Below, in pieces: positions 24,995 to 27,432 of a DNA stretch of 64,000 bases. The notes below the pieces were generated by a model. That model searched no databases. It was not told where the DNA came from and saw only the letters and a list, made by a program, of their open reading frames with translations. The stretch comes from Nitrososphaerota archaeon (lineage in GTDB: Archaea > Thermoproteota > Nitrososphaeria > Nitrososphaerales > Nitrosopumilaceae). Each line of letters starts with the position of its first letter. The first letter of the stretch is position 1. The position numbers and the translations under genes are program-made. The stretch covers positions 178,678-242,677 of the forward strand of contig JAGWFS010000002.1 of the NCBI GenBank assembly GCA_028867785.1, written 5' to 3'.

Positions 24995-25002
24995 TTATAA
25001 AG
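24995..25002 (+). promoter_or_regulatory. TATA box of the fluoride-riboswitch transcript
   Basis: TTATAAAG lies about 25 bases before 25020-25024, exactly where the riboswitch aptamer begins. The transcript therefore probably starts at the 5' edge of the RNA, unlike the leaderless neighbours. Confidence 0.6.
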
Positions 25003-25023
25003 GCGTAGTGAAAGAAATTATGT

Positions 25024-25090
25024 GGCTATGGCATTAGCCTTGGGACAAAATTCCTAAACCGCCCCAGAAGGAGCTGATAATGTCTACCTA
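25024..25090 (+). ncRNA. Fluoride (crcB) riboswitch aptamer
   Basis: The sequence matches the crcB RNA core: GGCT (25024-25027) and AGCC (25036-25039) form the pseudoknot pair around ATGGCATT, whose GGCATT (25030-25035) pairs with AATGTC (25079-25084) as stem P1. AAACC then GCCCC/GGAGC (25061-25065 with 25070-25074) is the inner hairpin, followed by the conserved CTGAT. The same ATGGCATT, AAACCGC and AGCTGAT blocks occur in the well-known Pseudomonas syringae fluoride riboswitch (from memory). An extra small hairpin (GGGA, loop, TTCC at 25042-25054) is inserted between the pseudoknot strand and AAACC. It binds fluoride with Mg ions. Confidence 0.9.
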
Positions 25091-25111
25091 ATGAAAAATT
25101 AAGAGGTAGAC
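25082..25111 (+). promoter_or_regulatory. Riboswitch expression platform, SD-sequestering hairpin
   Basis: GTCTACCT (25082-25089) and AGGTAGAC (25104-25111) form a perfect 8-bp stem. The right arm contains the Shine-Dalgarno GAGGT (25103-25107), six bases before the ATG at 25114. The left arm uses GTC, also the 3' strand of aptamer stem P1. The two folds exclude each other, so fluoride binding should free the ribosome-binding site and turn translation on. Confidence 0.75.
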
Positions 25112-25113
25112 AA

Positions 25114-26649
25114 ATGAACAAAAATAAAAAAAAACCAAGTTGCAGAATGACTTCATGCACAACAGTCAAGGCTTTCTCCATATTACCTCAAGTCAAAAGC
25201 AAAAAGATCTTTGAAGAATATCTCACCTATGGTATGATCATTTTCATATTGTCTAGTTTGTATCTAGTGCACAGCCCTGCCTTTGCACAGTATTACGATA
25301 AGACCCCCGAATTTACGCAGACAGAATCTAACAGCCAGCTGGTCGTAGGAAAAGCAGTTTCTTCGGATGGCTCTGTTCATGTTACATTGATATCTACGCC
25401 AATAGAACCAGATCAGCCTCTTGCTCTCCAAATATCCTTTACAGACCCACAGGGAAGGTTGATACCGTACGAAAATTATGGCATAAGGGCTCAACAGATA
25501 GAAGGTAATGGCGCGTGGATACTTTCAAACGAGTCTGCGCTCGCAGCTGATGGAAAAGATATTCAGGTTACAAGTGATTTGCAAAACGTAAGCCCCGTTA
25601 ACTTTCAAATCCAGCTGCAAGGATCAGGTGCTCCAGATACTAGTATATCGGAGTGGACAGGGCCAAACGAGATAGTAAGCATAACAATTGGCAATCAATA
25701 TAGCGCACATACGGCAGTGTCACAAGCTCCTTCTGGTACATCACAAGTTGTTACAATCCCATATGGTGCGTACAATCCGCAATTTGACACCTCGGCCCCA
25801 TCTTGGTATGCACCGTCCACTGTGACTATATCTGTGAATCAGAGTGTAACTTGGATAAATCAAGATAAGGAGATCCATACTGTAACAAGCGGTCACTCTT
25901 CAGGCAGAGCAAGTCTTCTTGGAAATAGCGTTGGGCAACCAAATGGTCTTTTTGACAGTGGCAACATCCTCATTGGCAAATCTTGGACCCACAAGTTCAC
26001 GACGACTGGAACATTCGAGTATTACTGTAGCTTGCACCCATGGATGCAGGGTTACGTGATAGTAAAGCCAACAGAATCTGTTCCTGTTGATGCATATGGG
26101 AACGAGATTACAAAATTTCCAGTCGTACGACTCACCCCTGACAGGGCATACGAGGTAGATCTCGATTGGGAGCCACATTACATTACAACTGGGAAACAAA
26201 TTGTGTTCATATATCAGGTCTACGACAACATCAAGTACGAAGCAATTCCGGCTCACTATGTATTTACAATTATACAAAATGGACAACAACTGTACAAAAT
26301 TGAAGACTCGACACAGTTTGGAGGGGCATACCAGTATTTTCGATTCGACAACACAGGGCCCGTGACCTTTGAATTTTCTGATATTGCACATACCGATCAA
26401 GATGTGCAGTATACTACTGTAGTAAATCCTGGCAACTCAACAGATACAAGTGATATGAATATGCCAATGGTTGAGCCTGCAAGAAACATGGATGTGAATT
26501 TCTGGCTAATGCCAATCTTCTTTGTGCCGGCTGGGGTGGCAGTTGCAGTCGTATATGCCAAGAAACGCATGAGGAATGCAGCAAAGACACATTTCCGTTC
26601 TTCTGACAGGCCCAATGATAAAACTTTAGCAAAAAAGACTCCGATATGA
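25114..26649 (+). CDS. Exported cupredoxin protein with C-terminal membrane anchor, under the fluoride riboswitch
   Basis: A 511-residue protein. ATG 25114 is supported by an SD (GAGGT) six bases before it. A signal segment lies near residues 35-57, after a positively charged leader. Residues about 60-200 form a beta domain with NxS sites. Residues about 215-315 are a plastocyanin-like domain: STVTISVNQSVTWINQDKEIHTVTSG and FEYYCSLHPWMQGYV give His, Cys, His and Met copper ligands. A further beta domain (residues 330-440) precedes a membrane segment (WLMPIFFVPAGVAVAVVYA) and basic tail. Its placement directly behind a fluoride riboswitch is unusual. The nearby crcB has its own likely promoter. 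Confidence 0.85.
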   Translation: MNKNKKKPSCRMTSCTTVKAFSILPQVKSKKIFEEYLTYGMIIFILSSLYLVHSPAFAQYYDKTPEFTQTESNSQLVVGKAVSSDGSVHVTLISTPIEPDQPLALQISFTDPQGRLIPYENYGIRAQQIEGNGAWILSNESALAADGKDIQVTSDLQNVSPVNFQIQLQGSGAPDTSISEWTGPNEIVSITIGNQYSAHTAVSQAPSGTSQVVTIPYGAYNPQFDTSAPSWYAPSTVTISVNQSVTWINQDKEIHTVTSGHSSGRASLLGNSVGQPNGLFDSGNILIGKSWTHKFTTTGTFEYYCSLHPWMQGYVIVKPTESVPVDAYGNEITKFPVVRLTPDRAYEVDLDWEPHYITTGKQIVFIYQVYDNIKYEAIPAHYVFTIIQNGQQLYKIEDSTQFGGAYQYFRFDNTGPVTFEFSDIAHTDQDVQYTTVVNPGNSTDTSDMNMPMVEPARNMDVNFWLMPIFFVPAGVAVAVVYAKKRMRNAAKTHFRSSDRPNDKTLAKKTPI

Positions 26650-26731
26650 AACTGAGCATGGAAGATTTTTCATATGGTACTGTGAAAACCAAAAATGTAG
26701 TTAATTTAAGTAACTGCTATACTAGTCAGGT

Positions 26732-27121
26732 ATGAAAATGATAGAGCTTGCTTTTCTTGCAGTAGGGGGAACGGCGGGAATTTTCCTAAGATATGGTATT
26801 ACAAAATCGCCGCTGCTGTTTGGAGCATTGCCTGTAAACATACTGATTGTAAACGTCATAGGAAGTTTCATTCTTGGCGCATTTGCAGTCGTTTCTCAGC
26901 AATGGAATCTGGATGAGAAATATGCACTGTTTGTAGCAATTGGGTTTTGTGGAGGGCTGACCACAATGTCCTCATTTGCGCTTGAAACCTCAAACATGAT
27001 TGATAACAAGCAATACCTGATGGTGGCAGTCAACGTTTTGACAAACGTGGGATTGTCACTTGGGGCAATATTTGGCGGCAGAGCTTTGACAGGCCTGATT
27101 TTGAGTGGAGGGTTTAGATGA
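26732..27121 (+). CDS. crcB: CrcB/Fluc fluoride channel
   Basis: A 129-residue protein with four membrane helices, standard for a dual-topology Fluc. Family blocks: GGTAGIFLRYGI at the N-terminus, NVIGSFILGAF, then GFCGGLTTMSSFALE (the GxxTTFSTF-type core, Na+ site and phenylalanine box), and a final GALFGG-like AIFGGRAL. It lets fluoride leave the cytoplasm. A TATA-like TTAATTTAAG about 26 bases before the ATG suggests a leaderless transcript separate from the riboswitch RNA. Overlaps the DUF190 gene by ATGA. Confidence 0.95.
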   Translation: MKMIELAFLAVGGTAGIFLRYGITKSPLLFGALPVNILIVNVIGSFILGAFAVVSQQWNLDEKYALFVAIGFCGGLTTMSSFALETSNMIDNKQYLMVAVNVLTNVGLSLGAIFGGRALTGLILSGGFR

Positions 27122-27432
27122 GAACACTGGACATGTGGGCGCTTGTGATAAGGATAAAGCGCAATGACACATTCAAGGGAAAACGCGTCCATAACCTGAT
27201 ACTTGACATTCTTAAGAAAGGCCATATCTCTGGCGCCACTGTGTGGACGGGGGTATCTGGATACGGCAAGCGCGGAAAATCCAATTTCCAAATAGAAGGA
27301 ATATCAATCAACATGCCGCTGGTAATAGAAGTAATAGACGATCTGAAAAAAATTGAAGAGATACTGCCAGAAATCAAAGAAATTATTGGCGACAATGGTC
27401 TTGTCACAGTAAACAAAATAGGCGTTGTATGA
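27118..27432 (+). CDS. DUF190 family protein
   Basis: A 104-residue protein of the DUF190 (PII-like fold) family, which is often found beside crcB. Blocks are LVIRIKRNDTFKGKRVHNLILDILKKGHISGATVWTGVSGYGKRGK and LVIEVIDDLKKIEEILPEI. Translationally coupled to crcB by the ATGA overlap. It may regulate the channel or sense a nucleotide; not shown. Confidence 0.92.
   Translation: MRTLDMWALVIRIKRNDTFKGKRVHNLILDILKKGHISGATVWTGVSGYGKRGKSNFQIEGISINMPLVIEVIDDLKKIEEILPEIKEIIGDNGLVTVNKIGVV

What the first reader, a model, noticed from the sequence alone, without database searches (positions are those of the whole stretch)
25079..25116. Expression platform that should turn translation on with fluoride
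GTC at 25082-25084 belongs both to aptamer stem P1 and to a downstream hairpin (GTCTACCT/AGGTAGAC) whose right arm overlaps the SD GAGGT. Ligand-bound aptamer would break the hairpin and expose the SD. It also makes this one of the few SD-led genes in a leaderless-rich genome, and the TATA box puts the transcript start at the aptamer's 5' edge.
Basis: partly seen in the sequence, partly recalled or inferred. Interest (0 to 1): 0.7.

Follow-up and report, generated by a model that had tools for sequence, protein, structure and literature searches.

The report
Fluoride-sensing RNA switch in ammonia-oxidising archaeon
An RNA element in the leader of a gene of an ammonia-oxidising archaeon almost certainly senses fluoride and, by letting go of a hairpin that covers the start of the gene, turns protein synthesis on; the same design is conserved across dozens of related archaea, so it is a well-supported new example of a known kind of switch.

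Summary
25015-25093 is a fluoride riboswitch aptamer (RF01734, 40.9 bits). GTCTACCT (25082-25089) pairs perfectly with AGGTAGAC (25104-25111), which overlaps GAGGT (25103-25107) and ends 2 nt before the ATG at 25114. The shared GTC belongs to the aptamer's pseudoknot, not P1; the overlap also takes in the linchpin U25085 and conserved A25086-C25087. The platform is far above chance (z -6.2) and conserved in 70 of 98 aptamers from the same archaeal class (shuffles 3-11). Pseudoknot, shared strand and right arm change together (G-C-G versus A-U-A). A TATA signal sits 26-30 nt upstream of the aptamer class-wide. Best reading: a translational ON switch, counterpart of bacterial fluoride terminators; fluoride response was not testable here. 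Corrections: a 4-bp remnant over the SD survives in the modelled bound state (-2 to -3 kcal/mol), and the SD is not conserved beyond what the hairpin requires. The switch directly governs a cupredoxin protein; crcB downstream probably has its own leaderless-type promoter. In relatives the same RNA-AUG unit often opens a 13-59-codon leader ORF overlapping the next gene, and two genomes carry 6-8 copies in one island. New member of a known kind.

The parts
24995..25001 (+). TATA box (TTATAAA), predicted archaeal promoter of the riboswitch transcript
   Evidence: sequence; class-wide T/A-rich signal at -30 to -26 from the first P1 base in 97 distinct loci
25022..25026 (+). predicted transcription start zone, at the 5' edge of the aptamer (inferred from TATA spacing, about 25-27 nt)
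   Evidence: inference and established archaeal promoter spacing; no mapped 5' end
25015..25093 (+). fluoride riboswitch aptamer match (RF01734)
   Evidence: cmscan 40.9 bits, gathering 34; the only copy in its genome
25024..25039 (+). aptamer stem P1 GGCT/AGCC with loop ATGGCATT
25030..25035 (+). pseudoknot 5' strand GGCATT
   Evidence: pairs with 25079-25084; covariation in relatives
25040..25057 (+). extra hairpin inserted between P1 and the AAACCGC junction (optional stem)
   Evidence: fold; a variable-length insert relative to the Rfam model
25061..25074 (+). aptamer stem P3
25079..25084 (+). pseudoknot 3' strand AATGTC; its last 3 nt are shared with the platform hairpin
25077..25085 (+). 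linchpin pair A25077 / U25085 (equivalent to A40-U48)
   Evidence: position by alignment to the Rfam model; linchpin described in PMC11077080
25082..25089 (+). left arm of the platform hairpin, GTCTACCT
25104..25111 (+). right arm of the platform hairpin, AGGTAGAC, ending 2 nt before the start codon
25103..25107 (+). Shine-Dalgarno-like GAGGT, 6 nt before ATG
   Evidence: complementary to the anti-SD GGATCACCTCC of relatives
25114..26649 (+). directly controlled gene: 511-aa protein with a cupredoxin domain (PF00127) and a hydrophobic stretch near the C-terminus
   Evidence: E 2.2e-5, residues 232-318
26703..26713 (+). TATA-like ATTTAAGTAA about 27 nt before the crcB ATG: probable own leaderless promoter of crcB
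   Evidence: same motif and spacing in several relatives; inference
26732..27121 (+). crcB (Fluc fluoride channel, PF02537)
   Evidence: E 2e-23
27118..27432 (+). DUF190 gene, start overlaps the crcB stop by 4 nt
   Evidence: E 2.7e-21

Best explanation
This is a translational ON fluoride riboswitch. Transcription starts at the aptamer's 5' edge. Without fluoride the pseudoknot is weak, and the right arm AGGTAGAC takes GUC, the linchpin U and ACCU from the aptamer's 3' end to form an 8-bp hairpin covering the Shine-Dalgarno-like GAGGU and ending 2 nt before AUG, so the 30S subunit cannot load. Fluoride with Mg2+ locks the pseudoknot and the linchpin A25077-U25085, which removes the basal 4 bp; the remaining 4-bp remnant is weak enough for a ribosome to open. 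The cupredoxin-like protein is then made, and crcB and DUF190 on the same transcript may follow, although crcB probably also has its own leaderless promoter. Shown: the aptamer match, both pairings, their conservation and joint variation, the TATA position. Inferred: fluoride binding, the transcript start, ribosome blocking and the direction of the response.
For: Rfam match above the curated cut-off. In 400 genomes of the class, 86 carry the aptamer, in 27 of 82 genera. The core of the hairpin (3 pseudoknot nt + U-A-C) is paired downstream in 70 of 98 aptamers, against 3-11 with shuffled arms. Anchoring only on the UACC part, all three pseudoknot-shared nt also pair in 45 of 61, with about 3 expected. 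P1 and pseudoknot: 99.5% of cells paired, 7 of 10 pairs with two-sided changes. The shared nt pair with the right arm in 79% of cells, against 13-37% when slid; covariation score 0.367, reached by 0 of 500 shuffles. Three-strand pattern loop/shared/right arm: A-U-A 24 times and G-C-G 21 times. The hairpin z-score is below -2 in 67 of 70 loci, median -10.4 kcal/mol, falling to -2.5 when the shared nt are blocked. The start codon follows the arm at 0-5 nt in 52 of 69 loci, mode 2 nt, also in front of unrelated genes. TATA signal at -30 to -26 from P1. No U-run after the hairpin.
Against: No fluoride or expression data exist for this lineage. In the constrained bound-state fold the SD stays mostly paired through the ACCU/AGGU remnant (mean unpaired probability 0.24 against 0.21; the region 25098-25118 rises from 0.44 to 0.68), so the switch depends on the energy difference. 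SD-like sequence is not conserved beyond what pairing demands. The pseudoknot contains a G-U wobble (25031/25083), making it weaker than in relatives. The two-sided changes reflect few independent events on the tree.
Confidence: 0.87

Rival explanations
1. The platform works on transcription or RNA stability: the hairpin promotes premature termination or processing without fluoride, as the overlapping terminators of bacterial fluoride riboswitches do.
For: The overlap geometry (pseudoknot and linchpin taken by a downstream hairpin) is the same as in bacterial transcriptional fluoride riboswitches (PMC11077080).
Against: The right arm is followed by AAATGAACAAAAATAAAA, with no U-run, and sits 0-5 nt before a start codon in most loci. 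Archaeal termination relies on U-tracts, not on hairpins (established knowledge).
Confidence: 0.07
2. A downstream transcription start gives a leaderless mRNA, so that the aptamer is bypassed for this gene.
For: The genome is SD-poor and TATA boxes cluster near -30 of start codons, the leaderless arrangement.
Against: No TATA-like sequence lies 25-30 nt upstream of 25114; the TATA box sits upstream of the aptamer, as in relatives.
Confidence: 0.03
3. The hairpin is a constitutive or protein-bound translational operator, and its overlap with the aptamer is incidental.
For: Hairpin stability far exceeds the pseudoknot duplex (-10.8 against -3.5 kcal/mol), so it could stay closed.
Against: The right arm co-varies with the shared pseudoknot strand, and the hairpin travels with the aptamer to unrelated genes; nothing in the pattern needs a protein.
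Confidence: 0.03

Closest known systems
Fluoride riboswitch of Thermococcus kodakarensis (Speed et al. 2018, cited in PMC11077080 and PMC8241225; transcript data in PMC4247193)
   Same: An archaeal, presumably translational fluoride switch; it lies upstream of the neighbour of crcB (TK0513) while crcB (TK0514) has its own start site, as proposed here.
   Different: A euryarchaeal hyperthermophile. The original paper was not readable here, so platform-level identity was not compared. The window belongs to a Nitrosotalea-type ammonia oxidiser and the first gene encodes a cupredoxin protein.
Bacillus cereus crcB riboswitch with overlapping terminator
   Same: Same aptamer class and the same overlap: a downstream hairpin invades the linchpin and the 3' pseudoknot strand; fluoride prevents this (PMC11077080).
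   Different: There the hairpin is an intrinsic terminator; here it covers the ribosome entry site and has no U-run.
Bacterial translational fluoride riboswitches (Pseudomonas syringae, Burkholderia pseudomallei; named in PMC13273304)
   Same: Predicted control of translation instead of termination.
   Different: Bacterial; not compared at sequence level here.
Synthetic riboswitch for haloarchaeal gene expression (PMC8241225)
   Same: Ligand-dependent control of translation in archaea.
   Different: Synthetic; not a fluoride aptamer.

Membership tests
Fluoride riboswitch aptamer (RF01734) | score above the curated gathering cut-off | tested here: met
   40.9 against 34 bits
Fluoride riboswitch aptamer (RF01734) | 6-bp pseudoknot between the P1 loop and the 3' strand | tested here: met
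   6 of 6 paired, one G-U; covariation in 38 distinct relatives
Fluoride riboswitch aptamer (RF01734) | linchpin A-U residues | tested here: met
   A25077 and U25085 present at the equivalent positions; both columns invariant in 38 relatives (A20 and T28)
Fluoride riboswitch aptamer (RF01734) | association with fluoride-export or fluoride-stress genes | tested here: met
   crcB is the second gene; in relatives crcB, cation/proton antiporter, enolase, Usp, MutS-like and complex-I/hydrogenase-4-like genes
Fluoride riboswitch aptamer (RF01734) | binds fluoride with Mg2+ | not testable with these tools
   needs in-line probing, SHAPE or NMR
Translational ON platform | hairpin mutually exclusive with the aptamer and covering the initiation region | tested here: met
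Translational ON platform | ligand frees the SD | tested here: inconclusive
   energy falls from -10.8 to between -2.3 and -3.1 kcal/mol, but a 4-bp remnant over the SD remains in the model
Intrinsic-terminator platform | U-run after the hairpin | tested here: not met
   AAATGAACAAAAATAAAA follows the right arm

The most novel reading that the evidence does not exclude
In Nitrosotalea-type archaea the aptamer, RBS hairpin and an A-rich AUG context form a mobile regulatory unit: it sits before unrelated genes, often through a 13-59-codon leader ORF whose stop overlaps the next start (ATGA or TAATG). Fluoride would then be relayed by translational coupling, and multi-copy islands would form a fluoride regulon in an acid-loving ammonia oxidiser. 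I know of no natural archaeal riboswitch described as acting through leader-ORF coupling.
Probability: 0.5. Interest if true: 0.65.

Novelty: new member of a known kind. Interest (0 to 1): 0.5.

Why it matters
PMC8241225 (2021) states that the only experimentally determined natural archaeal riboswitch was the fluoride switch of Thermococcus kodakarensis. Here the aptamer and a co-varying translational platform are seen across a whole class of ammonia-oxidising and related archaea, in a largely leaderless lineage where a leader is needed for such control. It names a concrete RNA to test, suggests that fluoride (HF at acid pH) is a real stress for soil ammonia oxidisers, and offers a fluoride-inducible expression cassette for archaea.

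Tried and rejected
(1) 16S rRNA in the window's own assembly: not found; relatives used instead. (3) Terminator reading: rejected, no U-run. (4) SD as an independent signal: SD matches of 5 nt or more occur before 2 of 60 genes against 2.4 by chance, and in relatives the SD-like letters vary except where pairing fixes them, so the SD itself is not independently supported. (5) A single platform for all relatives: rejected; family f4 lacks it and instead pairs the aptamer's junction and P3 strand CCGCTCGC with GCGAGCGG before the start codon. (6) Two weak aptamer hits (L062, L063) judged chance matches. (7) Structure prediction of the cupredoxin protein not run: it does not bear on the switch. 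(8) Speed et al. 2018 and Baker et al. 2012 could not be read.

Full report
What is there. The window lies in a Nitrosotalea-type ammonia-oxidising archaeon: named relatives of the downstream protein are Thaumarchaeota and Nitrosopumilaceae MAGs and Candidatus Nitrosotalea sp. TS. At 25015-25093 (+) a fluoride aptamer (RF01734) scores 40.9 bits against a cut-off of 34. It is the only copy in this genome. P1 is 25024-25027/25036-25039. The P1 loop GGCATT (25030-25035) pairs with AATGTC (25079-25084) as the pseudoknot, with one G-U wobble (25031/25083). By alignment the linchpin is A25077-U25085.

The finding. GTCTACCT (25082-25089) pairs with AGGTAGAC (25104-25111). Six of the eight left-arm letters are aptamer letters: the last three of the pseudoknot, the linchpin U and the conserved AC. 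The stretch 25079-25116 folds at -13.2 kcal/mol, z = -6.2 against 1000 dinucleotide shuffles, none as low.

Conservation. In 400 genomes of the same class, 86 hold the aptamer, in 27 of 82 genera. I collected 98 usable aptamers with their downstream DNA. In 70 of them the shared core is fully paired downstream; with shuffled arms 3-11 are. This search selects for pairing, so I repeated it anchored only on the part outside the pseudoknot: among 61 anchored loci, all three pseudoknot-shared letters also pair in 45, with about 3 expected. The middle shared letter shows a three-strand pattern: loop A, strand U, right arm A (24 loci) or G, C, G (21 loci). On 38 distinct sequences the P1 and pseudoknot pairs are 99.5% standard with two-sided changes in 7 of 10 pairs. 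The shared letters pair with the right arm in 79% of cells, against 13-37% when slid, and beat all 500 shuffles on cells paired and covariation score. Few independent events lie behind these counts: U is typical of the window's family and C of most others.

Position on the start codon. In 52 of 69 loci the start codon follows the right arm by 0-5 nt, most often 2. This holds before unrelated genes: crcB, a cupredoxin protein, a TIR protein, TFB, NuoH-like, an uncharacterised 191-aa protein and others. No U-run follows the hairpin in the window, so a terminator is unlikely. Blocking the shared letters and the linchpin drops the hairpin from a median of -10.4 to -2.5 kcal/mol across 70 loci. In the window the remnant is ACCU/AGGU (-2.3; -3.1 in the constrained fold) and still holds the SD; mean unpaired probability of the SD barely changes in the model (0.21 to 0.24), while the 25098-25118 region rises from 0.44 to 0.68. 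So SD exposure depends on the ribosome opening a weak remnant; this is inferred.

Promoter and SD background. Across 97 distinct loci a T/A signal peaks at -30 to -26 from the first P1 base. The window's TTATAAA lies at -29 to -23. With the usual 25-27 nt spacing, transcription begins at the aptamer's edge (about 25022-25026).

The operon. The first gene is a 511-aa protein with a cupredoxin domain (PF00127, E 2.2e-5); crcB (26732) and DUF190 (27118) follow. Upstream of crcB is ATTTAAGTAA about 27 nt before its ATG, conserved in several relatives with the same spacing: probably an own leaderless promoter. This resembles T. kodakarensis, where the aptamer precedes TK0513 and crcB (TK0514) has its own start site (PMC4247193).

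Wider picture. In about 19 related loci the AUG after the hairpin opens a 13-59-codon leader ORF. In seven its stop overlaps the next start by 4 nt, in two by 1 nt, and two more 4-nt overlaps are visible. Such overlaps support termination-reinitiation, demonstrated in Haloferax (PMC6728339). Two genomes carry islands at the same locus with six and eight hits, near NuoH/NuoD/hydrogenase-4-like genes, enolase, Usp, TFB, TIR, MFS and ferredoxin genes. mutS, K+/Cl- transport and formate-hydrogenlyase genes were already linked to this motif in 2010 (PMC2864571). Family f4 uses another partner: CCGCTCGC of the junction and P3 pairs with GCGAGCGG before the start codon, a second, independent-looking way to cover the start.

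Verdict. A translational ON fluoride riboswitch, confidence 0.87. Fluoride binding and the direction of the response are inferred from the family and the anatomy. It is a new member of a known kind; the leader-ORF relay and the islands are the more novel part.

Noticed in passing
G087:C37:52000-78000 (L032, L033) and G185:C57:22000-52000 (L034, L035): Islands with six and eight fluoride-aptamer hits in 20-25 kb, between the radical-SAM/PEBP genes and crcB-DUF190, holding a complex-I/hydrogenase-4-like cluster, enolase, Usp, TFB, TIR, MFS, ferritin and ferredoxin genes.
   Followed up: partly
L025, L026, L031, L041, L002, L003, L035 and others: Short leader ORFs (13-59 codons) start right after the RBS hairpin and end in ATGA or TAATG overlaps with the next gene.
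   Followed up: partly
L020, L071, L076, L078, L081, L083, L084 (family f4): A different platform: the CCGCTCGC junction/P3 strand of the aptamer pairs with GCGAGCGG just upstream of the crcB start.
   Followed up: partly
window 26703-26732: TATA-like ATTTAAGTAA about 27 nt before the crcB ATG, conserved in relatives: likely leaderless promoter of crcB independent of the riboswitch.
   Followed up: partly
window 25117-25146: The first ten codons after the riboswitch AUG are very A-rich (56% A on average in 42 family loci, window average 28%), even before unrelated proteins.
   Followed up: partly
L010, L013, L015, L008, L002, L003, L077, L086: The aptamer precedes a cation/proton antiporter-like protein in several families instead of crcB; the one tested (L010) matches PF00999 and CPA2 models.
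   Followed up: no
L005, L006, L007, L009 (families f21, f22): The aptamer precedes a ~495-aa protein; the one tested (L006) has a MutS domain V.
   Followed up: no
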